From: Eubacteriales bacterium
GTDB lineage: Bacteria > Bacillota > Clostridia > Saccharofermentanales > DTU023
NCBI GenBank assembly: GCA_030532065.1
Contig: JAUNLW010000001.1
Coordinates: forward strand, 62,001-126,000
Direction of reading: 5' to 3'
DNA: 64,000 nt
The translations under genes and the position numbers were made by a program. The notes beneath the pieces are model-generated. The model was not told the DNA's origin. It did not search any database and worked only from the letters and a program-made list of their open reading frames with translations. This document shows, in pieces, positions 4,383 through 54,434 of the stretch (its first letter is position 1; every line of letters starts with the position of its first letter).

Positions 4383-5702
4383 ATGTTAGTTGCCAAAAAT
4401 TATGCAGAGGAACTTGTACGTCTGCGCCGTCACTTTCACCGCATTGCCGAGCCTGGCTGGTTTGAGTTTGAAACCACTCTGGATATAATAGCCAGCTTAA
4501 AAGAGGGCCCCTGGAAAATCCAATCAGGCAGAAAAATTCACGACCAGGAACGTATGGGCTTGCCCAGCGACAAGGAAAGGGCTGACTACCTCGCTCGGTA
4601 TGTTGATCACAAGGCTTTGATTGTCAAAGCCGATGGATTAGGCCTCAGTGAAGCAGAGACCAATGATCTCCTGGATAATTACACGGGCCTGGTCGCGGAC
4701 TACGATACGGGTAGGCCGGGACCGTATGTGGTTATACGTTTCGATATTGACGCGCTTCCCATGCGTGAGAGTCAGAGTCCTGACCATCGCCCCAATCGTG
4801 AAGGTTTTGCGGAATCGACGGGACGAGCAACTCATGCCTGTGGCCATGACGCGCATATCAGCCTGGGGCTTTGCTGCGCGAAAATCATTGCGAGCTCCGA
4901 AATACTCACCGGTAAGTACAGATTGATCTTTCAACCTGCTGAAGAAGGCACGCGTGGCGCCTACAGCATGGTAAAACGCGATCTGGCGTGTGGCGCGGAC
5001 TTCTTACTCGCGAGCCATATCGGTCTGGGGATTCCCAGCGGCAAAGTGGGTGTTGGGTCTGAGTATTTTCTGGCCAGCAGCAAATACGATCTAAATATTC
5101 AAGGAAGGGAAGCTCATGCCGCCAGCAATCCTGAGGATGGGCGCAGTGCCCTCCTGGGAGCAGCCAGCCTGGCGCTCAGCCTTTCCTATCTCACTCAGGT
5201 AGGTAAAGGCAAAGCCTGGCTCAACGTGGGTGAGCTAAGAAGCGGCACGGCAGCTAACATTGTACCGGGTGAGGCGGAACTGCGCTTTGAGCTAAGATCT
5301 GATCGCCAGCCGGTCCTTGAGCAATTAGCTGAGAAGGTAGCCCGTATGGTGGAAGGAGAAATGTCTGGCCGTGAACTAACTTATCAGCTGGAACGTGTTA
5401 CTTCTGCCGACGCGCTGGACGAAAAATATCTGCCGGCTTACCGTCATTTGGGCGCTGGGCTTGCGGCAGAACTGGGAAGTCAGGGCTTTGATATAATCTT
5501 GAGCCCCCAATTCGGCGCGTCTGAGGATGTGGTTGCCTGGATCAATAAAGTTTGGGCTGAAGGTGGCCAGGTCATGCACTTGATGTTGGGCGCTGATATC
5601 AGCGCCAGCCATCATAATCCGGCCTTTGATCTGGATGAGAGCGCGCTGCCCCAGGCATTGGGTGCTCTGGAGGCCACGCTCTATTATTTCCAAGGTCTGT
5701 AA
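4383..5702 (+). CDS. M20-family amidohydrolase, AbgA-like
   Basis: This 439-residue cytosolic metallopeptidase-like enzyme has the metal site THACGHDAH (His151, Cys153, His155), FDIDALPMRES upstream of it, QPAEEGTRGA after it, and a late SASHHNPAFDLDE. The shared pattern with subunit A of p-aminobenzoyl-glutamate hydrolase is strong: an ERMGLP segment, DTGRPGP before the metal site, and the same length (about 436). That enzyme cleaves folate breakdown products; other relatives remove acyl or amino groups from amino acids. I infer an aminoacyl amidohydrolase of the AbgA group; the substrate is unproven, and no AbgB partner is next to it. It stands alone after a terminator, with an inverted repeat at its ribosome site. 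Confidence 0.85.
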   Translation: MLVAKNYAEELVRLRRHFHRIAEPGWFEFETTLDIIASLKEGPWKIQSGRKIHDQERMGLPSDKERADYLARYVDHKALIVKADGLGLSEAETNDLLDNYTGLVADYDTGRPGPYVVIRFDIDALPMRESQSPDHRPNREGFAESTGRATHACGHDAHISLGLCCAKIIASSEILTGKYRLIFQPAEEGTRGAYSMVKRDLACGADFLLASHIGLGIPSGKVGVGSEYFLASSKYDLNIQGREAHAASNPEDGRSALLGAASLALSLSYLTQVGKGKAWLNVGELRSGTAANIVPGEAELRFELRSDRQPVLEQLAEKVARMVEGEMSGRELTYQLERVTSADALDEKYLPAYRHLGAGLAAELGSQGFDIILSPQFGASEDVVAWINKVWAEGGQVMHLMLGADISASHHNPAFDLDESALPQALGALEATLYYFQGL

Positions 5703-5769
5703 TCATGTTATGATTAGGAGGCTTAGAGAGAAAAAGCGGACTAGTGGTCCGGAAAAGAGGAACTAGACT

Positions 5770-7068
5770 ATGTTAGATATAAATCTGTTGCGTCACGACC
5801 CCAGGATGGTGGAAGAAGCTCTGGCCAAGCGCGGCCTGCAGGTACATCTGGATGATTTCCTGCAAAAAGATGAGGAGCGCCGTTCTTTGATCCATGAGAC
5901 GGAGCAAATGAAGGCAGAGCGCAATCGTAAATCTCAAGAAGTACCCAAGCTCAAAAAAGCCGGTGAAGACGTATCCGGACTGATCACGGAAATGCGTGAA
6001 CTGGCTGACGGTATTAAAGAACGTGATGAGCGTTTGCAGGCATTGGACTCTGAAATGCGCGAGTTTATGCTGGGCCTGCCTAATATCCCGGCTTCTTCTG
6101 TAGTGGCTGGTGGTAAAGAATGCAATCAGGTGATGAAAACTTTTGGCAAGAAGCCGGAGTTTGACTTTGAGCCCCTGCATCACGTGGATATCGCGGAAAA
6201 ACTGGGCCTGATCGACTATGCCCGCGGCGTAAAGCTGGCCGGATCCGGATTCTGGATGTATCGCGGCCAAGGCGCTCTCTTAGAGCGTGCCCTGCTTAAT
6301 TTCTTCATGGATCAGCATATTAAGGATGGCTATGAGATGATCCTGGCCCCCTTTATCCTCAATTATCAGTGTGGCCTGTCTGCGGGCCAATTCCCCAAAT
6401 TTGCTGAGGATGTGTTCCAACTTCGCCTGCAAGGCAAGGAAGAGGACGAGTTTGGTCAGGACTTTAACCGCTTTCTCTTACCCACCTCGGAGACTGCTTT
6501 GGTTAACCTCTTCCGTGACGAAATCCTGCCGGAAGAAGACTTGCCCATCAAGCTCTTCTCTTTATCTCCCTGTTTCCGCCGTGAAGCCGGATCCTACCGC
6601 GCTGAAGAGCGTGGCATGATCCGTGGCCATCAGTTCAATAAGGTTGAAATGTTCCAATATACCAAGCCGGAAGATTCTCCGGCAGCTCTGGAAGAACTGA
6701 TCGGTAAGGCCTGTAACCTGGTAGAGCAGTTGGGTCTACACTTCCAGTTGGTAAAGCTCGCGGCCGGAGATGTTTCTGCTTCTATGCGTGAGACTTGGGA
6801 CATTGAGGTCTACATTCCCAGCATGGGTGGTTATAAGGAAGTTTCTTCTGTTTCCAACGCTGGTGACTATCAGGCGCGGCGCGGCAATCTTCGCTATCGT
6901 GACCAGGAAACCGGTAAAGCAGAATTCCTCCATACTTTAAATGGCTCTGGCCTGGCGACATCTCGTATTTTCCCGGCCATCCTGGAGCAAAACCAGACGA
7001 AAGACGGTCGGGTAAGAGTGCCGGAAGTATTACGTCCCTATCTCAATGGTCTGGAGTATTTAGGCTAA
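5770..7068 (+). CDS. serS: Seryl-tRNA synthetase
   Basis: This class II synthetase (432 residues) charges tRNA-Ser. It starts MLDINLLRHDP, as most bacterial SerRS do. A long coiled-coil arm (about residues 30-105) reaches the tRNA variable arm. The catalytic domain has motif 2 (SPCFRREAGSYRAEERGMIRGHQF, given here in part) and motif 3 (NGSGLATSRIFPAILE). Length is normal. Only 67 bases separate it from the preceding amidohydrolase gene. They hold a small CGGAC/GTCCG hairpin at 5737-5751 but no T-box. Confidence 0.97.
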   Translation: MLDINLLRHDPRMVEEALAKRGLQVHLDDFLQKDEERRSLIHETEQMKAERNRKSQEVPKLKKAGEDVSGLITEMRELADGIKERDERLQALDSEMREFMLGLPNIPASSVVAGGKECNQVMKTFGKKPEFDFEPLHHVDIAEKLGLIDYARGVKLAGSGFWMYRGQGALLERALLNFFMDQHIKDGYEMILAPFILNYQCGLSAGQFPKFAEDVFQLRLQGKEEDEFGQDFNRFLLPTSETALVNLFRDEILPEEDLPIKLFSLSPCFRREAGSYRAEERGMIRGHQFNKVEMFQYTKPEDSPAALEELIGKACNLVEQLGLHFQLVKLAAGDVSASMRETWDIEVYIPSMGGYKEVSSVSNAGDYQARRGNLRYRDQETGKAEFLHTLNGSGLATSRIFPAILEQNQTKDGRVRVPEVLRPYLNGLEYLG

Positions 7069-7074
7069 AAGTTT

Positions 7075-7095
7075 ACTGAATTAAGGTTCAGTTTT
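7075..7095 (+). terminator. Weak terminator after serS
   Basis: ACTGAA (7075-7080) pairs with TTCAGT (7087-7092), followed by a short TTT. It overlaps the end of the convergent gene. The stem is only 6 base pairs, so this is tentative. Confidence 0.35.
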
Positions 7096-8562
7096 GGGGG
7101 GAGCCGTCGCGATAGGAAAGCGGCGGCTTTCTTCTGTCGCCGCTGCTTCCGCCTCCGCTTCTGAGGCTCTTTCGGAAGCTCTGACGATGCTTTCCTGAGC
7201 TTGCTGCTCTTCCTGTAGTTGCCCTTCCGCCTGGGTTAGGAAACAATCTTCCGGATAACTGTATTCCGCATTCCAGAGAATCCATTCACTATAGCCGGCA
7301 TCGTAAAGGGCCTGGATTTGCTGGCGGATCTCCCAGGGACCATATTCCATGTAGTAGCCGGGTACCAGCCAATTGGCGGTAAAGGCTTGCAGCCAGGGAC
7401 GCAGCTTAGCGTAACCTTTCTGGAAGCTGGCTTTTTCGCCGTCGATCATGGCATTCTGCACGACTTCATATGGCTCCAGGTCCGGTTTATCAAAAAAGTT
7501 GTGACCAATGTAGGAGCCTACGCCGTTGCCCTGGCTACCTAAGGAAGAGTTGGCGTAGTGTGAAGGGTAGATCATGGGACAAATGGCGTCGATCGCGGTT
7601 AGCCCGATAGTGGACCAGTTCTGACCGATCAGTTTGCCGTCCACCTCAGACGTCATAACAATGGAAAAGAGATCGGCGGTCACAGGTACGCCCAGCTCCT
7701 CTTGAATCTTAATGCGGGCGAATTCCAAAAAACGGTTGATAGCGTATTCTTTGGGAATTGTCTCCTCCACTTTTTTATAGATAGGTGGTTTGTCGCTATC
7801 CGGCGCGCCAGTAGGGAAGCGCACGTAGTCGAACTGGATCTCATCCACGCCCATATTCACCACCTCGGTGGCGATATCTACCAAGTAGGCCCAATAGCGG
7901 GTGTCGTAAGGATTGGCAAAAGACTGGTTGCCTTCCAAGGGGAAAGTTAAAAGCTGGCCGTCAGTATCAATGAGGCAGAGGTCAGGTCGTTTCTGCGGCA
8001 TCAGCTCATCCTTAAAGCAAACAATGCGGGCGATCACGCGTACGCCGGCGGCATGACAGCGTTCTATGATTGCTTCCAGATCTAACTCGCCAGTAGAAGC
8101 GCCAATTTCCTGGGCTAGAGGGACCTGGCTATCATAGGTGAGCCCCCAGCTTTCTTTAACATCAATGACAAAAGCGTTTACTTCTGACCAGGAAGCCAGC
8201 GCCAAAGCCTCATCCAAGTTCTTGGCCCGCCCCAGGTAAATTCCTTTTACCGGTGACAGACTTTTATACTCGGTGCTTTTGGCCTGAACACGCGGCAGTT
8301 CGCCGAACTGCTCGTTAAGTATCTCCTGCATGGATTCCTGCTTAACACTCAAAGCTTGACGCGGTGGAGGCTCTGTAGCAGAAATGGATAATTGCGCCGT
8401 GGTTTCCTCAACGTCTTCCACTTTGAGTTCGTCCATGCGCTTATGAAAAAGCCTGCTGATCAGAAAAATCTGGCCGGCCAGGAGCACTACCAGTAAAATT
8501 ACGATCAGCACAAAGCTAAAAGGCTTGGGCTTTTTAGGGTCATTGAGGAAAATCCTGTTCAT
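7081..8562 (-). CDS. Membrane-anchored DUF4015-type glycosidase-like protein
   Basis: This protein has 493 residues. A membrane helix at residues 16-37 follows a short basic head, so the body should be outside the cell. The central region, from SPVKGIYLGRA (about 103) to ILWNAEYSY (about 445), matches the family called putative glycosyl hydrolase domain (DUF4015), a TIM-barrel-like fold: AFVIDVKESWG, RVIARIVCFKD, VDEIQFDYVRFP and ICPMIYPSHY. The DYVRFP and MIYPSHY segments are hallmark strands. The Ala/Glu-rich C-terminus looks disordered. Substrate is unknown; cell wall glycan is a guess. No ribosome site is visible before ATG 8562, and TATTCT lies six bases upstream. It converges on serS. 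Confidence 0.8.
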   Translation of the reverse strand: MNRIFLNDPKKPKPFSFVLIVILLVVLLAGQIFLISRLFHKRMDELKVEDVEETTAQLSISATEPPPRQALSVKQESMQEILNEQFGELPRVQAKSTEYKSLSPVKGIYLGRAKNLDEALALASWSEVNAFVIDVKESWGLTYDSQVPLAQEIGASTGELDLEAIIERCHAAGVRVIARIVCFKDELMPQKRPDLCLIDTDGQLLTFPLEGNQSFANPYDTRYWAYLVDIATEVVNMGVDEIQFDYVRFPTGAPDSDKPPIYKKVEETIPKEYAINRFLEFARIKIQEELGVPVTADLFSIVMTSEVDGKLIGQNWSTIGLTAIDAICPMIYPSHYANSSLGSQGNGVGSYIGHNFFDKPDLEPYEVVQNAMIDGEKASFQKGYAKLRPWLQAFTANWLVPGYYMEYGPWEIRQQIQALYDAGYSEWILWNAEYSYPEDCFLTQAEGQLQEEQQAQESIVRASERASEAEAEAAATEESRRFPIATAPPKTEP

Positions 8563-23972: not shown

Positions 23973-24065
23973 ACAGTCTGTTACACTTTGTCATTGACAA
24001 TTGGCGAGCCAGGCGCTCGACCAGCAGCCACTCTTATTACAATTAAATAGACAAAGCAAGCTAGT

Positions 24066-24120: not shown

Positions 24121-27100
24121 ATGGCTAATACAAAGCAAAAACATCACAATCCTCGAAATGCTATTACAATTACTGCCGCGCTCCTAGCGCTCCTATTCCT
24201 GGCTCCTCTGCTGGGGCCGGCCTGGCAGGTTAGTGCCATGAACGCTCAGCAGGTGGACTTGTCTTATGAGGACACCTGGCGCCTGCAGATCCAGGACTTA
24301 CAAGCCCCCCTCTTTTCCAACAGCCCTTTGACTGACAGCAAGGGCAATCCACGTGGACCAGGTATTTATAACGATGCTCCAGGCGTTAGTTTCGCGCAGA
24401 GTTTTATGTATATCTGGGATCCCGATGCTTATCGGTCACAGCTGGATCAGATCTACGATCCCGTAAGCGAAGAATTTGTTCTCAGCGATGACCAGGTCGT
24501 GGCGCTCTTGCCTTACCCGCAAGATATGTACTTCATGCCGGTAAATAACGAATATTTTGCCTTCCGCTATGTCAATCCATCGCCTTATCCCATACTTAAC
24601 TGCAATGTAGAATTGATCAGTCGCCAACATCCTGAGCGAAGTCTCTATATCTATAACAACAATGTTGTGTTGCCGGGCCAGCTTTCTCCCTTGTGTCTGA
24701 GTGAGTTAACGCTCTACGATGATGACTACAACAGCTATACGGCTGATTTGGACGATTTAGTTTTTGCCGGCTACAGCATAAGCTACCTGGATGTTGATAA
24801 TGGCTTGGTTACACTGGATTATGATCCCAGACAATACACTGTCCGTCTGACAAATTACAACGATTATTACACAGATTACCAACCCGCGAACGAGGAAGAA
24901 AGTGAAGACTATGGTGAATTCATGGACCACTTTTTCCCCAAACAGGATTCGCTGATCATAACCAATACTTTTGACCGGGATATTATCGAGCTCTATGCCA
25001 TTTTGATTGGGGATAACGGAGCCGAATTCCGTCTGATACTGCCTCTGGCCGCAGGTTTGAGGATTCCTCCTGGCGCCACGGTCGATCTGGGAGATTTCCT
25101 GGTCTGGCCGGGTAACATCGCTTTCCCCGGATACGATTATATCTTTGTTGATCAACTGGAGTTGGCATTTGCCGGTAATGATTACTATGACGGAGAGGAT
25201 ACTTACCTCTTCTACCTGCCAGCCTTGGATTTGGTCACGTGGGATCACTTCCCGGATATGGGTGATTTCGGTGAGTTCACTTCTGTGGAGGACTTACTAG
25301 GTGACACGACCATCGCGGAAAGCATTTATCTGGAGCCTTCCTCTTTGATCAGGGAGAATTCCGAAACTGTACCTGCCACCAGTCCACGTTCTACTTTGCC
25401 GATTGTACCGCAAGCGACCGAGCCGCCTACCAGAAGTACGATGCCGACTGTACCGCAAGCGACCGAGCCGCCTACCAGAAGTACGATGCCAACTGTACCT
25501 CTTTCTTATCAGGAAAACAGCAATACTGAATCGACTGAAATAGACGAAGAGGCAGATCCTTTTGCGCTGATTGAGATAAATCTGCCTCAACCCGGCCCGG
25601 AGCTGACAGCCGCTGAAGAACTGGGAGCTATGGCGGTACGTTCGTATATGGTGGCCCGCGTCTATTGGCAGCAGCTTATGGACTACCCTCTGGAAGACCC
25701 GGAAAATTTTGATGCTGAGGAATACGCAAAGCTCCTTGATCACGCCAACCAGGCCTTTGATAATGCCCAGCGCTTAGCAGATATGTTTGAACTGGCTTCT
25801 TCCAACCTGGCTGCCTTGGAAGAAAATCCGGGCTATAGCAGCTATGCCGTTCCAGGATCAGTAGATTATACGGAGTTGGGCCTGGATGACGCCAGCGGAC
25901 TTTCTCCTTACAGGGATATAAAACTAGACAACATCAGTAGGCAGATATTAGATCTGCCCGCTGGTGGTGGCGCTAGTGGTCAAAGCCTCATCTTCTTTAG
26001 TACTAAGAGTTCTGCCGAGAAGAAGAAGGCTGCTGAAGAGCGACAAGCGGCTCTGAAATGGGCGCAAAATGTGGTAGACACGTTTGACCATGCTAAGAGT
26101 GGCCAGAAACTAAAGACCGTTGCGGCTCATTTAGGTACTGATTGTCGCAGAGCCTTCGCAGTACTTAAACAGGCTAACGATATGCTAACCGGAGCAGCCT
26201 ATGAGGAATACGAAGATTATGCCAACACGGTTTACAAGGCTGGGGTAACCGCTCAGGCTGCCGGAGCGGTAGCGCAGTTGGGTTTATCTATAGCATGCCC
26301 GCCAACTACTGCTATAGGCAAGATTTCTCTGGGCGTGAGTACCGTATCTACCACGCTCACGGTTGGCTCTGCCGGAGCTACCATTTATAACAATGGTAAC
26401 GATAACGTTGTAAGTAAGACCCTGGATTCTATACAGAAACGTGTGGGGCCGGTAGCGGAAGTCTTTGCCATTACCGACCTGGTGTCAGGCGGCAAGAATC
26501 TGTTGAAGCATGGCCAGGAACTGCTAAAAGGCAAAAATGCTCTGGAGGCGCTCAAGTTCCTGACCACCCCGGAGGGATCAGAACTTGCTCGTGATGCTGT
26601 AATGCAGGGGGTGAGTGGCTTATCCTACTTCACCAATGAAATCATGAACTATACCGGCAACAAGCAGCTCCTGAGTGGTGTTTGGACCTTTACGCCACAG
26701 GGACTCAAATTTACTCTGATGGATACCTTGGCCGGCCGAGATCCAGCTCAGGCAAAGGCCATCAAAGACGAACTCAAAGCCAAGGGCTACGATCCGGAAC
26801 AACTGCCGGCCAGTGTGCTGACAGGTGAGGAAGGCAACATAGCAGAACCCAGCGACATGGATTCTATTCCGCCGGAACTGGGAAACAAGATTCTGGAACG
26901 GAACTCAGCTTATGATCCGGCTGCCGGCATTTTGAGCCAAGAAGAGTGGGCTAATCTTGTTGACGCGCTAAATCAACTGATTGATCAAATCTATGAGGAA
27001 GCGGCAGAAGAACTTCTGGCCGAAACTCCTACCGCCCCCGAAACAGAAATCAGCGATGAGCGCCTGGCCTCACTTATAGGCCGCTGGAGATGGGATTATA

Positions 27101-27960
27101 TCGCGGATGGTATGCTGGGCGATGATGCAGCCACGTATCAGGAAATGACCGATCTCGGCATGAAGCTGGACTTCTATTTCAACTTGCTGCCCGACGGCAA
27201 GATGAGTATGGATTATGATTTTTCTATGCCTTTTCCGGTCGCCGGCCTCGATACCATACCGGAACGGATAACAAGATCGATCTATAATATATCAACCTAT
27301 GAGATGAAGGAGGCGCTGGCTCACAGCAGATACGAACTCAGAGGTGAAGATGAGATAGTGTTTAAGACAGAGGGTTCTGATCAAGAAATAGTAAGCCATT
27401 ACAGCCTGGATGGAGATGTCTTGAAATGGGAGTACGAAGGTAGAACTTTGACCTATGTCAGGGTCTCTGATCCCGTACAAGCATCTCCTGCTAAATCGCA
27501 GCCCTATAACCCCGCAAAACCTTTGCTTGGTACCTGGAGCCTGGATGTTCTGGCCTTTGCGAGGTCTGCGGGAGGCGAGGAAATCTTCGCCGAGATGCGC
27601 GAATATTATGACGCGGGCGGTGTCATAGCAGTTTATTTTAGCCTCCTGGAAGATGCCAGCGTTGGCGTGGATTATGACTACGCGCCACCGATAGGCGTGG
27701 ACGCCAATCAGCAGTCACATTACAATGAAATCATCCGTGACTTGGACCTGGAAGGCATTGTCGCGGCAATTGTGGAGGCACAAGCAGAATTAAGCGGCGT
27801 TCATTATGAGTACACCGGACAAAATGCTGGTACTATTAGCCTCTATTCGGAAGCAGGTGAGTCAATTATCAGCTTGGACTATGAAGTTAATGCTGATACA
27901 CTCACTTTGACCGGCCCAGGTGATCAAATAATTGTATGTAACCGAGTCCAATCTAATTAA
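24121..27960 (+). CDS. Very large secreted protein of unknown function
   Basis: The frame is open from 24001, but ATG 24121 follows CAGGAGG and begins a clear signal peptide: a basic head, then TITAALLALLFLAPLLGP, with likely cleavage after VSA. The mature protein is about 1240 residues. Residues 40-400 are rich in Tyr and Asp and predicted to be beta-rich. A Pro/Thr linker with tandem repeats lies at about 423-465. A helical section follows (about 500-680), then a Gly/Ala-rich stretch at about 705-770 with two long hydrophobic runs. The C-terminus holds two similar domains starting LIGRWRWD (985) and LLGTWSLD (1135), lipocalin-like in look. No LPXTG sorting signal, lipobox or catalytic motif was found, so the protein may be released. 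I cannot assign a function. Confidence 0.85.
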   Translation: MANTKQKHHNPRNAITITAALLALLFLAPLLGPAWQVSAMNAQQVDLSYEDTWRLQIQDLQAPLFSNSPLTDSKGNPRGPGIYNDAPGVSFAQSFMYIWDPDAYRSQLDQIYDPVSEEFVLSDDQVVALLPYPQDMYFMPVNNEYFAFRYVNPSPYPILNCNVELISRQHPERSLYIYNNNVVLPGQLSPLCLSELTLYDDDYNSYTADLDDLVFAGYSISYLDVDNGLVTLDYDPRQYTVRLTNYNDYYTDYQPANEEESEDYGEFMDHFFPKQDSLIITNTFDRDIIELYAILIGDNGAEFRLILPLAAGLRIPPGATVDLGDFLVWPGNIAFPGYDYIFVDQLELAFAGNDYYDGEDTYLFYLPALDLVTWDHFPDMGDFGEFTSVEDLLGDTTIAESIYLEPSSLIRENSETVPATSPRSTLPIVPQATEPPTRSTMPTVPQATEPPTRSTMPTVPLSYQENSNTESTEIDEEADPFALIEINLPQPGPELTAAEELGAMAVRSYMVARVYWQQLMDYPLEDPENFDAEEYAKLLDHANQAFDNAQRLADMFELASSNLAALEENPGYSSYAVPGSVDYTELGLDDASGLSPYRDIKLDNISRQILDLPAGGGASGQSLIFFSTKSSAEKKKAAEERQAALKWAQNVVDTFDHAKSGQKLKTVAAHLGTDCRRAFAVLKQANDMLTGAAYEEYEDYANTVYKAGVTAQAAGAVAQLGLSIACPPTTAIGKISLGVSTVSTTLTVGSAGATIYNNGNDNVVSKTLDSIQKRVGPVAEVFAITDLVSGGKNLLKHGQELLKGKNALEALKFLTTPEGSELARDAVMQGVSGLSYFTNEIMNYTGNKQLLSGVWTFTPQGLKFTLMDTLAGRDPAQAKAIKDELKAKGYDPEQLPASVLTGEEGNIAEPSDMDSIPPELGNKILERNSAYDPAAGILSQEEWANLVDALNQLIDQIYEEAAEELLAETPTAPETEISDERLASLIGRWRWDYIADGMLGDDAATYQEMTDLGMKLDFYFNLLPDGKMSMDYDFSMPFPVAGLDTIPERITRSIYNISTYEMKEALAHSRYELRGEDEIVFKTEGSDQEIVSHYSLDGDVLKWEYEGRTLTYVRVSDPVQASPAKSQPYNPAKPLLGTWSLDVLAFARSAGGEEIFAEMREYYDAGGVIAVYFSLLEDASVGVDYDYAPPIGVDANQQSHYNEIIRDLDLEGIVAAIVEAQAELSGVHYEYTGQNAGTISLYSEAGESIISLDYEVNADTLTLTGPGDQIIVCNRVQSN
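25405..25494 (+). repeat. Two tandem 45-base repeats encoding a Pro/Thr linker
   Basis: Units at 25405-25449 and 25450-25494 are almost identical in DNA and encode VPQATEPPTRSTMPT twice. A degenerate unit precedes them and a partial one follows. Near-identity at the DNA level points to recent slippage, so copy number may vary between strains. Confidence 0.9.
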
Positions 27961-46168: not shown

Positions 46169-46216
46169 TGAGTTGTGTTGCTTTAGCAAAAAAGTATTGT
46201 GTATTGGGAGGTGCGA

Positions 46217-47578
46217 ATGCGCAAGATACGTGTAGTGATCTGGGGATTCGGTGCCATGGGAAGTGGTATTGCTCGGATGATTCTCGAAAAAGAAGGCTTG
46301 GAAATAACCGGCGTAGTAGATGGCTGGGATGCCATTATTGGCCAAGATATCTATGAACGCCTGGGGGTTGAGCGGGGAGATCGCCCGTCTGTAAAAATCA
46401 CGAAAAATCCGGAAGATGTTATTAGCCGTGACAAGTGCGATATTGTACTTATGGCGACGGACTCTTTTACGGCCAAAGCTTACCCCAAAATCTGCTTCTG
46501 CCTGGAGCAGGGAGTAAACGTGATCTCTACTGCCGAAGAAATGTCCTGGCCTTGGGCTTCCGAGCCGGAACTTTCTGCGGAAATGGATCGTCTGGCGCGC
46601 CAGAATCAGGTCACAGTTATTGGAACTGGTGTCAATCCTGGTTTTATCCTGGATCTTTTAGTAGTAGTACTGACCGGAGCTTGCGAGCAGGTAGAGTCTA
46701 TTGAGGCTGCCCGTATCAACGACCTCTCACCCTTTGGCCGTGCTGTTATGGAAGAGCAGGGTGTAGGCTTGACCGTGGATGAGTTCAACGAACTTAACCA
46801 AAAAGGCCAACTGGCCGGCCATGTCGGATTTAAAGAATCTGTTGCCATTATCGCGGCCGGACTGGGCTGGGATGTGGCTGAATTCAAAGAAATAAAAGAG
46901 CCAATCGTTTCCTCAGTCGAACGCAAGGCAGATCATTTCCATGTTTTGCCTGGTAACGTTGCCGGTGTGCGTCAACAATGCTTTGCTTACGATAAAGAGG
47001 GACGTCAGATTATTCATCTGGACCACCCGCAGCAAGTCTATCCAGAACTGGAAGGTACCGAAACTGGCGACTATATTACCATTCATACGGGTGAATATGA
47101 TATGAATCTGCGTATCAAGCCAGAAACTCCGGGTGGCATTGGCACTATCGCGATGGTAGCTAATATGATTCCGCTTATTATAAACGCTAAACCAGGCCTC
47201 TTAAGCCTATTAGACCTGCCCCTGCCCCGTGCCATGGAAGGCGATGTTCGCCTCAAATTAACCCAGAATCAGGAAGCGCGTCACCTGTATAAGGCCGGTG
47301 ATACGGTAGTGGTGGAGCAGATCTCTCTACCGGCAGGCCAAAGATCAGGCAAACTGCCTGCTGACACAGCGCAGACCGATTTGATCCTCTGGCTCAAAGG
47401 TGAGCTCTTAGCCGACGCCTATACGGGAGACGAAGTGAAGATTCGCACCATTATTGGCCGCGAAGTTACAGGCCGGCTTACCAACCGACCGGTCTCTTAC
47501 CAGCATGATTTTGGACGTATGCAGCCTCTATTACAAGAGGTTGGACAACAAGTCAAACGCGCGCTGTGGGAGGATTAA
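46217..47578 (+). CDS. Fusion of 2,4-diaminopentanoate dehydrogenase (Ord) and AKP thiolase alpha subunit (OrtA)
   Basis: The start ATG 46217 follows GGGAGGTG. Residues 1-350 are Ord: a Rossmann motif VVIWGFGAMGSGIA at the start, the VISTAEEMSWPW segment near 105 and the GTGVNPGFILDLL region. Ord oxidises 2,4-diaminopentanoate to 2-amino-4-ketopentanoate with loss of ammonia. Residues 355-453 match OrtA, normally a separate subunit of about 100 residues: YKAGDTVVVEQI, LWLKGELL, a GDEVKIRTIIGREVTG strand pair and YQHDFG. OrtA with OrtB cleaves the product of Ord, so the fusion joins successive steps. ortB begins two bases after the stop. I saw no frameshift or linker defect. Confidence 0.87.
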   Translation: MRKIRVVIWGFGAMGSGIARMILEKEGLEITGVVDGWDAIIGQDIYERLGVERGDRPSVKITKNPEDVISRDKCDIVLMATDSFTAKAYPKICFCLEQGVNVISTAEEMSWPWASEPELSAEMDRLARQNQVTVIGTGVNPGFILDLLVVVLTGACEQVESIEAARINDLSPFGRAVMEEQGVGLTVDEFNELNQKGQLAGHVGFKESVAIIAAGLGWDVAEFKEIKEPIVSSVERKADHFHVLPGNVAGVRQQCFAYDKEGRQIIHLDHPQQVYPELEGTETGDYITIHTGEYDMNLRIKPETPGGIGTIAMVANMIPLIINAKPGLLSLLDLPLPRAMEGDVRLKLTQNQEARHLYKAGDTVVVEQISLPAGQRSGKLPADTAQTDLILWLKGELLADAYTGDEVKIRTIIGREVTGRLTNRPVSYQHDFGRMQPLLQEVGQQVKRALWED

Positions 47579-47580
47579 GC

Positions 47581-48987
47581 ATGAGAGATTTATCATATAA
47601 AGCAGTAATGGCCCGCCAAACTGAGATCATGCGTCAAGCCGTAGGCTTGGACTACTCGCAATTTGAACGCCCTGACTCCAGTTTTGACTACGAAGCTCTG
47701 ATGGCTGCGGTGCCCTATAGTCTGGAGGAAGTGAGAAAGATCCAGGAGAGCCTGCACGTAGGTCATACACCCTTTGTTTATCTGGACAATCTAACGGCTT
47801 TAGCCCGCAAGTTCGCTCCTGAAGGTCAGGGTGCCAAAATTTACTTAAAAGACGAAGCTTCCAACCCCTCAGGTTCTTATAAAGCCCGTCGTGCTTCTTT
47901 ATCCGTTTATGAGGCTAAACGCCTGGGCTACAAGGGCGTTATCGCGGCAACTTCCGGCAACTACGGAGCTGCTGTTGCCTCAATGGCGGCCAAGCTGGGC
48001 CTCAAATGTATCGTGGTGCAGGAGTGCTATGACTCACGCGGTATCGGCCAACCTGAGATCCTAGAGAAACAACGTAAATGTGAGGCTTTAGGAGCAGAAG
48101 TCGTACAGCTTAACGTCGGTCCTGAGCTTTTCTATGAGACCCTTAAACTGCTGGAAGAAACCGGCTTCTATGACGCCTCGCTCTATACGCCAACCGCAAT
48201 CGCGGGCGTAGAAACTTTGGGTTATGAGCTGGTCGAGGATTGCCGCGGAGTTTTGGGAAAAGACCCGGACTATGTCATCGCCACTAATGCCGGTGGCGGT
48301 AATCTTACCGGCACGGCACGCGGCGTAAAGAAAGCTGGCGCTGATAATACCAAGATCTACGCGGCATCAGTCGATCTTTCCGGCCTGCATATGGCCTCTG
48401 ACCATGATTTCAACCGCAAGTCATTTACTACCGGTCATACCGGCTTCGGTATTCCCTTTACTGTCCAACCGGACCGCTCAGACGTGCCACGCAATGCCGC
48501 TAGACCATTGCGCTATTTGGATCGCTACCTGCTATTAAAGCAGGGTGAAGTCTTCTATATCACAGAAGCCCTGGCATCTCTGGAAGGTATGGAGCGTGGA
48601 CCGGCCGGTAATACTTCGCTGGCTGCCGCTTTTGCTTTGGCGCCGACTTTGCCGGAGGATAAGGTCATAGTGGTACAAGAGACCGAGTATACCGGTGCGG
48701 GAAAACACCCCATGCCGCAGCTCAGTTTCGCGCAAGATCAAGGCATCGAGATCTTCTTTGGTGATCCAGAAGAGGAAGTCCCGGGTAAGAACATCATTCT
48801 GCCTGAGCATCCTTCCAAAATCGGCCTGCGTGACTATGACTTAGCTGATTTGCGACGCTCGGCGTTACGCCGCATGATCGCCAAGATGCCAGAAATCGGG
48901 CCCGAGCAAAAAACCTACCTCCGCGCGGAACTCAACTGCGATGAAAGTTTCCTGGAAGAGGAACTGCGCGCGCAGGGAAGAGCCTAA
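47581..48987 (+). CDS. ortB: 2-amino-4-ketopentanoate thiolase, beta subunit
   Basis: OrtB is the PLP-binding subunit that, with OrtA, cleaves 2-amino-4-ketopentanoate with CoA to acetyl-CoA and alanine. The 468-residue protein has a fold type II PLP pattern: YLKDEASNPSGSYKARRA with the PLP Lys after SGSY (about residue 104), ATSGNYGAAVASMAAKLG for the phosphate of the substrate, and TNAGGGNLTG, the glycine loop holding the cofactor phosphate. The start ATG 47581 is two bases after the previous stop; an in-frame TTG at 47566 lies inside that gene. Confidence 0.92.
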   Translation: MRDLSYKAVMARQTEIMRQAVGLDYSQFERPDSSFDYEALMAAVPYSLEEVRKIQESLHVGHTPFVYLDNLTALARKFAPEGQGAKIYLKDEASNPSGSYKARRASLSVYEAKRLGYKGVIAATSGNYGAAVASMAAKLGLKCIVVQECYDSRGIGQPEILEKQRKCEALGAEVVQLNVGPELFYETLKLLEETGFYDASLYTPTAIAGVETLGYELVEDCRGVLGKDPDYVIATNAGGGNLTGTARGVKKAGADNTKIYAASVDLSGLHMASDHDFNRKSFTTGHTGFGIPFTVQPDRSDVPRNAARPLRYLDRYLLLKQGEVFYITEALASLEGMERGPAGNTSLAAAFALAPTLPEDKVIVVQETEYTGAGKHPMPQLSFAQDQGIEIFFGDPEEEVPGKNIILPEHPSKIGLRDYDLADLRRSALRRMIAKMPEIGPEQKTYLRAELNCDESFLEEELRAQGRA

Positions 48988-49066
48988 ATATTCATAAGTA
49001 AGAGGGGACTTGTGCCAGCGAAGCCGGGCCCCCTTTGTTAAATTTGTTTGTATAAGGGAGAAAGAT

Positions 49067-49420
49067 ATGGCAAGACCGGATGATTTTGCAACACGAAGAC
49101 AACACCTGGCTAATCTCTCAGATGAAGAACTCTATGAGCGCTTCTGGGAATTGGCTGATAAGATCGTAGAACCAATGCTGGATGCTGGTAAAGTTTATAC
49201 GACTCCAGCTATTGAGCGCTCAGTGCTACTGCGTATGGGCTTTTCCAGCGTAGAAGCTAAGCCAATCGTGGATGGACTCCTGGAAAGAGAGCTCCTGGGA
49301 CATGGCGCTGGCAACTGCGTCTACCTTTTGGCCAGGAAACTGGACCTGCCGATCCGTGAGGCTGGCCTCAGCCTGATACAAGGCAAAAACTGGGATTTAG
49401 TACCCGGCCTGTTCGCGTAA
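49067..49420 (+). CDS. oraS: D-ornithine 4,5-aminomutase small subunit
   Basis: The 117-residue protein matches OraS: MARPDDFATRRQHLANLSDEEL at the start (given in part), FWELADKIVEPML, SIERSVLLRMGFSS-like AIERSVLLRMGFSSVEAK, and GHGAGNCVYLLAR. OraS pairs with OraE to shift the terminal amino group of D-ornithine using adenosylcobalamin and PLP. The start at 49067 follows GGGAG; an earlier in-frame start at 49010 has no ribosome site. oraE follows after 10 bases. Confidence 0.93.
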   Translation: MARPDDFATRRQHLANLSDEELYERFWELADKIVEPMLDAGKVYTTPAIERSVLLRMGFSSVEAKPIVDGLLERELLGHGAGNCVYLLARKLDLPIREAGLSLIQGKNWDLVPGLFA

Positions 49421-49430
49421 GGAGCTAAGT

Positions 49431-51683
49431 ATGTCTGATAAGAAAAAGTTCAACAATAATGCCCAATTACCCAGCCTTGAACCCAATGAGCGCTTAGATG
49501 TGCGTGAGATCCTGGATGGCCTGGAAAACTACCATCCCGCAAAGCACCCCTGGCACTGGCGTGAAGGTCGTAATCAAGAACGTAAGATCGGTGATTTCAC
49601 TTACTATGAGACCTCAGAACCGCTCAAAAATTCCGTACCCCTGCCAGGCAGCCGCGGATTTGGCTATATCGATCCCCAACCTGACTGCGTGATTACGACT
49701 GAAATAGCCTCGGGCAGATTTGAAGACGATATCCGTCGTATGCGTATGGCAGCCTGGAACGGCGCAGATCACCTTATGGTTATTCGTACCGCAGGCCAGT
49801 CACACATTGACGCTCTACTGGAAGGTACTACCCAGGGTATCGGCGGTATCCCGGTTACCCGTAAGCAGTGCCGTGCTACGCGCCGCGCTTTAGACCTTAT
49901 TGAAGAAGAAGTAGGTCGTCCTTTAAATTACCACTCCTATGTCTCCGGTGTTGCCGGCCCTGATATAGCGGTAATGTTCCACGAAGAAGGTGTTTCCGGT
50001 GTCCACCAAGATCCACAGTATAACGTCTTATACCGCAACATCAACGGCTTGCGTTCTTTTGTTGACGCCTGTGAATCTAAGGCCATTATTGCCGACGGTG
50101 GCATGCTACAGATCGACGGTGCTCACAATGCCAACGCCACGGCCATGGAAGCCTGGAAAGTTATGCCGGAGCTGATGGTACAACACGCTATCAACACCGC
50201 TTTCTCCAGAGGTTGTGGTATTAAGGCAGAGAATATTGCCCTGTCTACGGTGCCTCCAACTGCGCCACCTGCGCCCTGCATGAGGCTCGACCTGCCTTAC
50301 GCCGTAGCCTTACGCGACCTTTTCCGCGACTACAAGATGCGGGCACAGCAAAATACCAAATATATGGAATCCGAGACGCGTGAAGCGACAGTAACCCATA
50401 CGCTGAACATGATGATCTCACGCCTGACTTCCGCGGACATCCAGTCCACAATTACGCCAGATGAAGGCCGCAACGTTCCCTGGCACTACTACAACATCAA
50501 CGCCGTCAATACGGCGCGTCAGGCTCTGGACGGCATGGATGGCTTACGTCAAATGGTCAGGATCGACCGTGATGGACCTCTGGGTGAAGCTGTGCGTGAG
50601 CTGAAAGAAAGAGCTGTGCTCTTCATGGAAGAAATCCTGGAAGTTGGTGGCTATTTTGAAGCTGTAGAAAAAGGATTCTTTATTGACAATGGCTTGTATC
50701 CTGAGCGTAAAGGCGATGGCCTGGTCAGAGAGAAAAATGGTGGTATTGGCTCCGGAACTGTGGTTAAGCGTGAACCGGACTATTTCGCCCCTGTTTCTGT
50801 CCACTATGGTGACAACCATCTGCCTGAAGGCATCAAGAATCCCTCTGATGCCATCGGTGGCGATACCTTTGAAAAACCTGAGAAAATCATTTTCATCGAT
50901 GAGTTAGATCCGGAAGATAACGTCAACACGCGTATCAAAGAAAAACAAAATTACTTTGATCATCCGAATCTGGTGAGGCCGGAAGTAGAGTGGCTGGCAG
51001 ACGGCGTGATTGTAATCACGCTCATGCTGCCCTGCAATCGCAGACGGGCTGAGTTTGCCGCTATCGAGATCGGTAAACGGTTGGGACTTAACGAACCCAC
51101 TGTAATCCATAGCCAGGTCATGCACCCCTCAGAAGGTACGTTGATTGAGTTAAAAGGTAGTATCGACTTTGATATTGACCTGGATAAGCTCGATATACCC
51201 GAGGAGATTCCCGTACTATCAGAAAAAGAGATCCGCGATTTCGTACACCAGCGTCCTGTTACTGTAGTTGCGGCTACTGTGGGTGAAGACGAGCACTCTG
51301 TAGGACTTAAGGAAATCCTGGATATCAAGCACGGCGGTATTGAAGGCTTTGGCATTACCTATCACTACCTGGGAACTTCAGTTCCTGTAGATCAGTTGGT
51401 TGACGCAGCCATTGAAACCAACGCGGACGCAATTCTGCAGTCTACGATCATCTCGCATGACGATGTCCATATCAAGAATATGGAAAAACTGGACCAGATC
51501 TGCCGTGAGCGCGGTGTGCGTGACAAGCTGATCTTAGTCTGTGGCGGCACGCAGGTGACCAATGAGATCGCGGTAAAAGCAGGAGCTGATGTGGGTTTCG
51601 GACGTGGCTCACACGGAATTGATGTAGCCTCTTTCATAGTTAAGACCTTGCAAGCTCGTGAGGGCAAGGAGGAAAAACACTAA
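49431..51683 (+). CDS. oraE: D-ornithine 4,5-aminomutase large subunit
   Basis: This is the catalytic subunit (750 residues, the usual length). The C-terminal B12 domain has DEHSVG (about 620-625), with His622 as the likely cobalt ligand, and IKHGG with Lys633, which by spacing matches the PLP lysine of the Clostridium sticklandii enzyme. CGGTQVTNEI and GRGSHG complete the B12 site. The TIM-barrel part contains YHSYVSG-like NYHSYVSGVAGPDIAVMF. The enzyme turns D-ornithine into 2,4-diaminopentanoate. Such radical mutases inactivate themselves, which fits the accessory ATPase gene downstream. Confidence 0.96.
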   Translation: MSDKKKFNNNAQLPSLEPNERLDVREILDGLENYHPAKHPWHWREGRNQERKIGDFTYYETSEPLKNSVPLPGSRGFGYIDPQPDCVITTEIASGRFEDDIRRMRMAAWNGADHLMVIRTAGQSHIDALLEGTTQGIGGIPVTRKQCRATRRALDLIEEEVGRPLNYHSYVSGVAGPDIAVMFHEEGVSGVHQDPQYNVLYRNINGLRSFVDACESKAIIADGGMLQIDGAHNANATAMEAWKVMPELMVQHAINTAFSRGCGIKAENIALSTVPPTAPPAPCMRLDLPYAVALRDLFRDYKMRAQQNTKYMESETREATVTHTLNMMISRLTSADIQSTITPDEGRNVPWHYYNINAVNTARQALDGMDGLRQMVRIDRDGPLGEAVRELKERAVLFMEEILEVGGYFEAVEKGFFIDNGLYPERKGDGLVREKNGGIGSGTVVKREPDYFAPVSVHYGDNHLPEGIKNPSDAIGGDTFEKPEKIIFIDELDPEDNVNTRIKEKQNYFDHPNLVRPEVEWLADGVIVITLMLPCNRRRAEFAAIEIGKRLGLNEPTVIHSQVMHPSEGTLIELKGSIDFDIDLDKLDIPEEIPVLSEKEIRDFVHQRPVTVVAATVGEDEHSVGLKEILDIKHGGIEGFGITYHYLGTSVPVDQLVDAAIETNADAILQSTIISHDDVHIKNMEKLDQICRERGVRDKLILVCGGTQVTNEIAVKAGADVGFGRGSHGIDVASFIVKTLQAREGKEEKH

Positions 51684-51718
51684 TTTTTGCCTGAGGTGAA
51701 TTTAGTAATTTAGCCTGT

Positions 51719-51794
51719 AAAAGCCCTTCCTGGCGAGAAGGCCAAGCGTCAAGCTTAACTGACGTTTAGCATAAGATCCGGGAGGGCTTTTTTG
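51719..51794 (+). terminator. Branched terminator between oraE and the accessory gene
   Basis: AAGCCCTTCC (51721-51730) pairs with GGGAGGGCTT (51780-51789), followed by TTTTTTG. Inside it CGTCA/TGACG (51747-51751 with 51760-51764) forms a second hairpin, and GGCGAGAAGGCC makes a third small one. The long inner part makes this more than a simple terminator. It is partial or regulated if the genes downstream depend on the same promoter. Confidence 0.75.
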
Positions 51795-51851
51795 CAGGTA
51801 GTTATAGTAGAATGACTTTAGTCATTGAGTAAGCGGAGGAATATTCAAGCT

Positions 51852-53210
51852 ATGCATATTGATGTTCTGGTTGCCGAAATCGGCAGCACTACCACAGTGC
51901 TTAACGCCTTTGATCACCTGTCAGATGAAGAGCCAGTCTTCTTAGGGCAGGGTCAAGCCCGCACTACGGTAGAAGAAGGAGATGTCTCCCTGGGCCTGGA
52001 ATTAGCCCTGGATTCACTCAAAGAAAATCTAGGCATAGCCGAACTTAGCTGGGGTCATATGTTGGCCTCTTCCTCGGCGGCCGGTGGACTGCGCATGACA
52101 GTGCATGGCCTGGTTTATGATATGACCGTTAGAGCCGCTAAAGAAGCCTGCCTGGGCTCCGGTGGCGTGATCAAGCAAGTAACAGCCGGTAAATTACGCC
52201 CGGCCGCAGTAGAAAAAATCCGACGTATCCGACCTAATATCATCTTTGTGGCCGGAGGTACAGACTATGGTGAATGGGAAACCGCTCTGCATAATGCGGA
52301 AGTTCTGATGCAGGCCTGCCCAGATTTACCCATGATCTACGCCGGTAACATCAGCAATCAGGATGAGATAAGAAGTCTGGCTGAGCAGTACGGTGTAGAA
52401 GTCTATATCACGGAAAATGTCTATCCTGCTCTGGATGAGCTTAATATTGAACCAGCCCGCCGCTTAATTCATGAGGTTTTCCAAAAACATATCGTACATT
52501 CACCAGGTATGGAACGCATTAGAGATCTGGTTGATGGACCAATATTACCTACACCAGGGGCTGTTATGGAAGCGGCCATCCTGCTATACGAGAGTTTGGG
52601 TGACCTACTAGTCATGGATATTGGCGGCGCGACCACGGATATTCATTCTGTAACAGAGGGTAACCCCAATAACATTGAATATCTGCTTAACGCTGAGCCC
52701 ACAGCTAAAAGAACGGTAGAAGGAGACCTGGGGGTCTTCGTTAATCGTTTCCATATATATGAGCAGTTCACCGAAGCGGAAAAATTTACTTATGGCAAGC
52801 AAATTGAAGCCGGATTGGAAAAACTTCCCAAGATCCCAGAAACTGAGGAAGATCTGGAATTAGCGACACTCCTGGCGAGAAAAGCCGCGGCGGTCGCCTT
52901 GTCCAGGCATGTTGGTAACTGGACCGAAGTTTTCACGATCAGTGGCATGCAGCGTTTTATCAAGGGTAAAGACCTTAGCCTGATCAAGTACGCTATAGGG
53001 ACTGGTGGCGCTCTGACCCGCTTGCCGCAAGGTGGACAAATCTTAAAAGACCTCTTTGTATCACCGCCGGCCAAGTATCTATTGCCCGGCGAAACTCCAC
53101 CGGTCTTACTGGACCAAGATTACATCATGGCTTCTTTGGGCGTATTGGCCAAAACCCAGCCACAAGCAGCGTTAAGATTATTAAAGCAGAGCCTTAAGCT
53201 ATCTGATTAA
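51852..53210 (+). CDS. MutL/GlmL-family accessory ATPase of ornithine aminomutase
   Basis: The 452-residue protein has an actin-like ATPase pattern: DVLVAEIGSTTT at the start, SSAAGGLRM, IIFVAGGTDYGEWE, and the second phosphate motif LLVMDIGGATTDIHS (about residue 260). This is the MutL/GlmL family, found beside B12-dependent mutases and thought to act as a reactivating factor. In known ornithine operons a gene of this family sits next to oraE. The start ATG 51852 has GCGGAGGA upstream; the longer TTG start at 51825 has no ribosome site. It is not the DNA mismatch protein of the same name. Confidence 0.88.
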   Translation: MHIDVLVAEIGSTTTVLNAFDHLSDEEPVFLGQGQARTTVEEGDVSLGLELALDSLKENLGIAELSWGHMLASSSAAGGLRMTVHGLVYDMTVRAAKEACLGSGGVIKQVTAGKLRPAAVEKIRRIRPNIIFVAGGTDYGEWETALHNAEVLMQACPDLPMIYAGNISNQDEIRSLAEQYGVEVYITENVYPALDELNIEPARRLIHEVFQKHIVHSPGMERIRDLVDGPILPTPGAVMEAAILLYESLGDLLVMDIGGATTDIHSVTEGNPNNIEYLLNAEPTAKRTVEGDLGVFVNRFHIYEQFTEAEKFTYGKQIEAGLEKLPKIPETEEDLELATLLARKAAAVALSRHVGNWTEVFTISGMQRFIKGKDLSLIKYAIGTGGALTRLPQGGQILKDLFVSPPAKYLLPGETPPVLLDQDYIMASLGVLAKTQPQAALRLLKQSLKLSD

Positions 53211-53289
53211 GATCATTTAGCCCTTTATAGCTTTGCCGAAAATAGCGAAGTCAATCTCACAGCCCACGAGCTGGCTAGAAAGGAACAAG

Positions 53290-54351
53290 ATGCAAAACCC
53301 CGCTCTCCTAATTAATAAAGTAAAGTTTCGCGACAACGCGCTCAAACTGCGCGCGCTCTTTGACAAGCACCACAAAGAATTTCACGTAGTGACCAAGTGT
53401 TTTTGCGCTTATGAGCCCATGGTACAGGTATTGGCAGAAGCAGGCATTACCAAACTGGCAGATTCCCGCCTGGAGAACTTTTACTGCTTGCAAAAGTATG
53501 CTCAGGACTCGCTCTTGCTGCGTCTGCCGATGCTCTCCGAAGTCACTGAAGTCGTGGGACTTTGCGATATGAGCCTAAACTCAGAATATGACACCATTTG
53601 TGCCTTGTCCGATGCTGCCCTGGTGCAGCAGAAAACCCACGGTGTGATCCTGATGCTGGAAATGGGTGACCGTAGGGAAGGAGCTTCACTGGAAGAAGCC
53701 GACGCCATGATTGCTAAGATCGTCAATCTCAGAGGCGTACGCCTGGTTGGCATTGGCGCAAACTTTAATTGCTATGGTGGCGTTATTCCAGATGAGAAAA
53801 AAATGCGGGAATTGGCCGATTTTGCTAACTACGTAGAGCAGCGTTATGGCTTTGAGCTAGAATATGTCTCCGGAGGAAACTCAGGCAGTCTCTGGCTTCT
53901 GGAAGAGGACAAATTACTTCCCGAAGTCAACCATCTCAGGATCGGTGAAGGGTTGCTTTTAGGAAGAGAAACCTCTTTCGGACACAGCATAGCAGGACTA
54001 CATCACGATGTCTTTACCTTGCGAGCGGAAATTATAGAGTTAAAGCGAAAACCCTCCTTGCCTGACGGGCGCATCGGCCTTAATGCCTTGGGTGAGCAAG
54101 TTACATTCAAAGATGAAGGTATGCTCAATCGAGCAATACTTGCTATTGGTGCCCAAGACGTGGATCCCAGCCGCATGCAACCCAAGCTCAAGGGTGTACG
54201 TTATTTGGGTAACTCTTCAGATCATACCATCTGCGATGTTACACACTTAAACCAAGATCTGAGAGTAGGCGATACGTTGGACTTTGCTTTAGACTACTCC
54301 TGCCTCTTAGCTCTCTTTACCTCCCCCTATGTGAAGAAGTACTGGATCTAA
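53290..54351 (+). CDS. orr: Ornithine racemase
   Basis: The 353-residue protein is a PLP enzyme of the alanine racemase N-terminal family. The PLP lysine is in HVVTKCFCAYE (about residue 38), GANFNCYGG follows later, and SGGNSGS and LRIGEGLLLG bind the cofactor phosphate. It lacks the C-terminal domain of alanine racemase and matches Orr by context and size. Orr interconverts L- and D-ornithine, feeding the D-specific aminomutase OraS/OraE. The start ATG 53290 follows AAAGGAAC; an upstream TTG at 53233 lacks a ribosome site. Confidence 0.9.
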   Translation: MQNPALLINKVKFRDNALKLRALFDKHHKEFHVVTKCFCAYEPMVQVLAEAGITKLADSRLENFYCLQKYAQDSLLLRLPMLSEVTEVVGLCDMSLNSEYDTICALSDAALVQQKTHGVILMLEMGDRREGASLEEADAMIAKIVNLRGVRLVGIGANFNCYGGVIPDEKKMRELADFANYVEQRYGFELEYVSGGNSGSLWLLEEDKLLPEVNHLRIGEGLLLGRETSFGHSIAGLHHDVFTLRAEIIELKRKPSLPDGRIGLNALGEQVTFKDEGMLNRAILAIGAQDVDPSRMQPKLKGVRYLGNSSDHTICDVTHLNQDLRVGDTLDFALDYSCLLALFTSPYVKKYWI

Positions 54352-54434
54352 CCCTTATTGAGAACCTGACGGCCCTCAGGTATGCTGCGCTGCAGTGTGC
54401 CAGGTGTTAATTCCCAGCTAGAAAGAGTTTATCT

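What the first reader, a model, noticed from the sequence alone, without database searches (positions are those of the whole stretch)
24121..27960. 1279-residue secreted protein with paired C-terminal domains
A clear signal peptide starts a protein with beta-rich, helical, Gly/Ala-rich hydrophobic and twin lipocalin-like C-terminal parts, and a repeated Pro/Thr linker. No wall anchor is present. The hydrophobic Gly/Ala section recalls membrane-inserting proteins such as large toxins or their delivery modules, but this is only a resemblance.
Basis: partly seen in the sequence, partly recalled or inferred. Interest (0 to 1): 0.6.

Follow-up and report, generated by a model that had tools for sequence, protein, structure and literature searches.

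The report
Secreted protein of unnamed envelope family
This is a large secreted bacterial protein whose middle part belongs to an unnamed, rarely occurring family of cell-surface proteins from Clostridia-like bacteria, most of them lipid-anchored and ending in a small beta domain; nothing found points to a toxin.

Summary
The 1279-residue ORF (24121-27960, +) is real: an AGGAGG ribosome site, an N-terminal signal sequence, a 45-bp Pro/Thr linker repeat (2.3 copies, 96%) and two true C-terminal copies (z 14.8). It has no significant Pfam, NCBIfam, PHROGs, PADLOC or PDB sequence match. It is not a complete orphan: a profile built without it matches residues 486-1113 at E 3e-55 (best of 300 shuffles 0.93). 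Relatives occur in about 2% of class genomes, in 6 of 188 genomes of the order, and in a MAG labelled Fusobacteria. Most are 500-620-aa lipoproteins: lipobox, helices, moderately hydrophobic Gly/Ala hairpin, linker, C-terminal beta domain. AlphaFold gives that last domain in relative L011 as an 8-stranded barrel (pLDDT about 95; nearest lipocalin/FABP/Cap15 folds, E about 4e-3). The window protein is a divergent member: no lipobox, an extra unmatched N-terminal region, a doubled C-terminal domain. Four relatives sit beside a multi-TM LuxR regulator, a 2-TM protein or a zinc-ribbon protein; the window gene does not. The toxin reading is not supported. I favour an extracellular binding or scaffold protein; that function is inferred, and the core fold is unsolved.

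The parts
24121..24237 (+). Signal peptide (residues 1-39), type I, no lipobox
   Evidence: hydrophobic stretch KD 2.3 at residues 14-32 and ...QVSA|MN cleavage-like end read from sequence; no lipobox found, unlike most relatives
24238..25395 (+). N-terminal region, residues 40-425; looks beta-rich by eye; no relatives found
   Evidence: no Pfam match; no match better than E 0.003 in 186 genomes of the order apart from itself; its two halves are not repeats of each other
25397..25499 (+). Pro/Thr linker, 45-bp unit x 2.3 (QATEPPTRSTMPTVP)
   Evidence: TRF 96% matches, score 192
25570..27063 (+). Family core, residues 484-981: helix pair, helices with LG-x-D motif, Gly/Ala hairpin, post-core LSG-W...FTLMDTL motif, acidic linker
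   Evidence: profile from 16 relatives without the window: E 3e-55; profile from 4 relatives of the order: E 2e-60, segments 484-554 and 638-981
26239..26400 (+). Gly/Ala-rich hairpin, residues 707-760
   Evidence: aligned to the hairpin of 16 relatives; KD maximum 1.27
27064..27501 (+). C-terminal copy 1, residues 982-1127 (starts LIGRW)
   Evidence: duplicate of copy 2, z 14.8; no third copy in own genome or 37 genomes of the family
27517..27957 (+). C-terminal copy 2, residues 1133-1279 (starts LLGTW)
   Evidence: duplicate of copy 1

Best explanation
The gene encodes a secreted, extracellular multidomain member of an unnamed, patchily distributed family of cell-envelope proteins. The shared part is a helical core (about 330 residues plus a post-core segment) with a Gly/Ala helical hairpin, followed in most relatives by a small C-terminal beta domain (a calycin-type barrel in the one case modelled well). 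Most likely it is an envelope binding or scaffold protein: the helical core packs as a soluble or surface-associated bundle and holds beta domains that bind a ligand or partner outside the cell. In this genome's lineage a lipoprotein-like form probably lost its lipid anchor, gained an N-terminal region and doubled its C-terminal domain. Shown: secretion signal (by sequence), family membership of residues 484-981, duplication, lipoprotein form of relatives. Inferred: binding function, calycin fold of the window's copies, order of gains and losses.
For: Window-free profile E 3e-55 against P0001, best shuffle 0.93. The tree places the window with lipoproteins L052 and L053 of the same order (99/98), though on a long branch of 1.49. 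Lipobox in L011, L030-L032, L050-L053, L058, L073 (L010's pattern match lies inside its signal sequence and is not counted). Variable ends around the same core: SLH-like, MucBP and MORN-like parts in L008, SbsA-like start and MORN-like end in L074 (read from sequence), single C-terminal domain in lipoproteins. C-terminal domain of L011 predicted at pLDDT about 95 with 8 strands; top PDB matches lipocalins, FABPs, Cap15. Three relatives lie near a LuxR protein with 7-10 predicted TM segments (7 in the truncated L050 copy), the kind shown in Eggerthella to activate neighbouring genes in response to small molecules (PMC9734109).
Against: No biochemical evidence for any ligand. Core fold not predicted with confidence (pLDDT 44, pTM 0.25; hairpin below 50). 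No Foldseek match reached E 0.001. The window's C-terminal copies do not match the relatives' barrel by profile (8.6%). The LuxR/2-TM/zinc-ribbon neighbours are absent at the window and at most relatives. Free secretion is an awkward end for a mostly anchored family.
Confidence: 0.5

Rival explanations
1. The helical core is a membrane-inserting module: the Gly/Ala hairpin enters a bilayer, as in colicin-like or ClyA-like proteins, and the protein is a secreted bacteriocin or toxin whose beta domains bind the target.
For: Two-helix Gly/Ala hairpin in all members, hydrophobic enough (KD 1.5-1.9) in several relatives. Helix-rich core in both models. A small 2-TM protein next to three relatives could be an immunity protein.
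Against: Window hairpin KD only 1.27; charged residues conserved inside the hairpins of relatives. Ten relatives are lipoproteins. No significant toxin, PHROG, PADLOC or PDB match. No partner at the window, and no copies on plasmids or phages. No pore-forming protein among the best Foldseek matches, but the core model is too weak for that to count.
Confidence: 0.1
2. The protein is a ligand sensor or receptor for a membrane-spanning LuxR regulator: the extracellular barrel captures a small molecule and signals to the regulator encoded beside it.
For: Homologous LuxR proteins (51-66% identical) in L008, L050 and L032 within a few genes; homologous 2-TM proteins in L008, L050, L058; zinc-ribbon proteins 71% identical in L032 and L058. 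Lipocalin-like barrel in L011.
Against: Only 4 of about 17 relatives show any of these neighbours; the window has none. Regulation of the gene by LuxR is as likely as sensing for it.
Confidence: 0.2
3. It is an exported structural or adhesion protein of no special mechanism (a generic surface scaffold); the core has no function beyond spacing.
For: Pro/Thr linker, duplicated domain, interchangeable terminal domains.
Against: The core keeps specific residues (W-A, D, LG-x-D, K, I-x-x-G) across distant genomes, more than a spacer needs.
Confidence: 0.2

Closest known systems
Unnamed Bacillota/Fusobacteria lipoprotein family
   Same: Helix pair, LG-x-D helices, Gly/Ala hairpin, post-core segment (most alike in L051-L053), acidic or Thr/Pro linker, beta domain at the C-terminus
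   Different: Window lacks the lipobox, has an extra N-terminal region of about 385 residues, a Pro/Thr repeat and two C-terminal copies that do not match the family's barrel by sequence
Lipocalin/FABP-like (calycin) barrels
   Same: C-terminal domain of relative L011 modelled as 8 strands, Foldseek probability about 1.0 to lipocalins and FABPs; window copies begin with G-x-W (IGRW, LGTW)
   Different: No sequence-level match in Pfam or PDB; Foldseek E above 0.001; window copies are longer (146-147 residues against about 100)
Coriobacterial multi-TM LuxR-regulated loci (PMC9734109)
   Same: LuxR regulators with many TM segments near three relatives
   Different: The neighbour gene is a lipoprotein or surface protein, not a known enzyme; no such regulator at the window
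Helical pore-forming toxins with hydrophobic hairpin (colicin-like, ClyA-like)
   Same: General pattern only: helices around a Gly/Ala hairpin (a resemblance from memory)
   Different: No profile or fold match; low hydrophobicity in the window; lipid-anchored relatives

Membership tests
Unnamed helical-core envelope family (defined here) | Core profile match over helix pair, LG-x-D helices and hairpin | tested here: met
   E 3e-55 with a window-free profile, best shuffle 0.93
Unnamed helical-core envelope family (defined here) | Export signal | tested here: met
   signal peptide by hydropathy and sequence; no dedicated predictor was available
Unnamed helical-core envelope family (defined here) | Lipobox anchor (common, not universal: absent in L008, L009, L074) | tested here: not met
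Unnamed helical-core envelope family (defined here) | Homologous C-terminal barrel domain (lipoprotein branch) | tested here: inconclusive
   profile-profile probability 8.6%
Lipocalin-like (calycin) domain | Eight-stranded antiparallel barrel | tested here: inconclusive
   predicted for relative L011; window copies modelled mostly below pLDDT 55
Lipocalin-like (calycin) domain | G-x-W near the start of strand A | tested here: met
   IGRW and LGTW at the start of both copies, invariant columns; a short motif, weak on its own
Pore-forming toxin / polymorphic toxin | Match to a known toxin, pretoxin or delivery family | tested here: not met
Pore-forming toxin / polymorphic toxin | Membrane-inserting hydrophobic hairpin | tested here: inconclusive
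   KD 1.27 in window, 1.3-1.9 in relatives
Pore-forming toxin / polymorphic toxin | Adjacent immunity-like gene | tested here: not met
   window neighbours are M18 aminopeptidase-like and hemZ-like genes; 2-TM neighbour in 3 relatives only

The most novel reading that the evidence does not exclude
The helical Gly/Ala core is a new fold that acts as a sensing or membrane-contact module in an unrecognised envelope system (multi-TM LuxR regulator, 2-TM protein, zinc-ribbon protein, core lipoprotein with a calycin barrel), of which the window protein is an unanchored, expanded version.
Probability: 0.15. Interest if true: 0.55.

Novelty: new variant of a known kind. Interest (0 to 1): 0.33.

Why it matters
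It turns an apparent orphan into a member of a recognisable family, absent from the libraries searched here, with a well-defined core, a predicted lipocalin-like domain in at least one relative and, in some genomes, a recurrent neighbourhood with a multi-TM LuxR regulator. If the ligand-binding reading is right, the family would be a set of extracellular binding proteins open to screening with small molecules. As it stands it is mainly an annotation advance.

Tried and rejected
Whole-protein tblastn in plasmids and phages, for the window and for L011: none. Pattern scan of genome contigs with the full window protein: none; alignment A1 was too diverse to scan. Viral contigs: none. AlphaFold of residues 466-1279 failed, and Foldseek on that model is meaningless. 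BFVD search of the L011 model gave nothing significant. N-terminal halves as repeats: rejected. N-terminal relatives in the order: only chance-level hits, E 0.003 or worse. PDB profile hits for the core (stage III sporulation AB, CENP-Q): weak, treated as chance. Foreign origin: GC 0.495, GC3 0.51 and codon usage are slightly lower than most neighbours but not clearly foreign. Promoter and terminator scans were at chance level.

Full report
What was checked. The ORF at 24121-27960 translates to 1279 residues, with AGGAGG just before the ATG and composition close to the neighbouring genes. A longer TTG start at 24001 exists in frame, but the ATG has the ribosome site. The signal sequence, the Pro/Thr repeat (45 bp x 2.3, 96%) and the duplicated C-terminus (z 14.8) are real. 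No Pfam or NCBIfam family (best Pfam E 0.08 to 0.2), no significant PHROG (best E 0.13), no PADLOC family and no PDB sequence matches.

Occurrence. It is the only copy in its 1.6-Mb genome. None of the other 37 genomes of its family has it, with the protein or with the core profile. In the two other genomes of the genus the neighbourhood of hemZ lacks it: in G011 hemZ is next to an M3-peptidase-like gene, and in G010 other genes including an IS21-like pair lie there (gene names from my reading).

Finding relatives. A class-wide search gave short weak matches, all to residues 623-793. The proteins behind them turned out to share a helical core. Alignments A1 and then A4 found 7 of 381 class genomes, 17 of 188 genomes of the order (6 with the core in full or nearly full, the rest with little beyond the first helices), 2 others among 389 phylum genomes, 2 more in the order of G356, and four named records, including a MAG labelled Fusobacteria and Mageeibacillus sp. 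UBA5747, whose contig has the same length as that of order-mate G384. L057 and L031 look like the same record. Circularity was removed by rebuilding the profile without the window: E 3e-55 for residues 486-1113 of P0001, against 0.93 for the best of 300 shuffles; a four-member profile from the order gave 2e-60 with segments 484-554 and 638-981.

Anatomy of the family. Ten relatives are lipoproteins by lipobox. The typical order is lipobox, short linker, helix pair (Y..AR...E.L), variable linker, helices with W-A and LG-x-D, Gly/Ala hairpin, a segment around 'GK.LG', a linker that is often acidic or Thr/Pro-rich, and a C-terminal domain of about 100 residues. Other members swap the ends: L008 has SLH-like, MucBP/Muc_B2 and MORN-like parts, L074 an SbsA-like beginning and MORN-like end (sequence reading). 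The core therefore behaves as a module combined with other extracellular domains. The window version has no lipobox, a unique N-terminal region and two C-terminal copies. In a tree of cores it groups with L052 and L053 of the same order (99/98), on a long branch, which fits descent within the order followed by fast change; loss in other genomes and transfer are both possible.

Structure. The window fragment 466-1279 was modelled poorly (pLDDT 44, pTM 0.25). For L011 the C-terminal domain reached about 95 with eight strands, while the hairpin stayed below 50. Foldseek put that domain next to lipocalins, bile-acid/fatty-acid binding proteins, Cap15 and designed barrels, probability about 1.0 but E no better than 4e-3. 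The window's own copies could not be tied to that barrel by profile comparison (8.6%); both begin with G-x-W.

Neighbourhood. At the window the gene stands between an M18-aminopeptidase-like and a hemZ-like gene, about 40 bp before the latter's likely ATG. In relatives L008, L050 and L032 a LuxR protein with several TM segments lies nearby (51-66% identical to one another); a 2-TM protein precedes the core gene in L008, L050 and L058; a zinc-ribbon protein is shared by L032 and L058. Similar LuxR proteins in Eggerthella were shown to activate neighbouring metabolic genes in response to substrates (PMC9734109). This is a lead, not a property of the window.

Judgement. Membership of residues 484-981 in the family is close to certain. 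A secreted envelope protein with binding domains is the most economical reading; a toxin is unlikely; the exact function is open.

Noticed in passing
L054:5914-9786, L055:5998-9792, L056:5326-9240, L059:6009-10163: Proteins of 1264-1384 aa in one genus of the same order: zinc ribbon, one TM segment, only the first helices of the core (YLYAR...E.LLETDLA), then repeated beta domains (GEITVSMLWDSxDDLDLHV; Pfam P_proprotein hit in L054) and a C-type lectin domain.
   Followed up: partly
L008, L050, L032, L058: Recurrent neighbourhood of multi-TM LuxR regulator, 2-TM protein of 173-188 aa and zinc-ribbon 2-TM protein around the core gene; the 173-188 aa proteins pass no Pfam cut-off.
   Followed up: partly
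window 46199-55610: Run of genes that from memory looks like an ornithine fermentation cluster (dehydrogenase, thiolase subunit, aminomutase-like B12 protein, MutL-like protein, two racemase-like proteins); not tested with profiles.
   Followed up: no
L019:6789-9058 (G010): IS21-like transposase and helper pair (by reading) near hemZ in a same-genus genome, suggesting local rearrangement.
   Followed up: no
L020:7845-9446 and L020:1113-2477 (G011): Two other secreted proteins (533 and 454 aa) close to hemZ in a same-genus genome; the second gives a short weak match (E 0.007) to the window's N-terminal part.
   Followed up: no
L008, within 5110-8487 (hairpin of the core protein): The hairpin of this relative contains an in-frame repeat expansion, (GTAAA)n at the protein level.
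   Followed up: no
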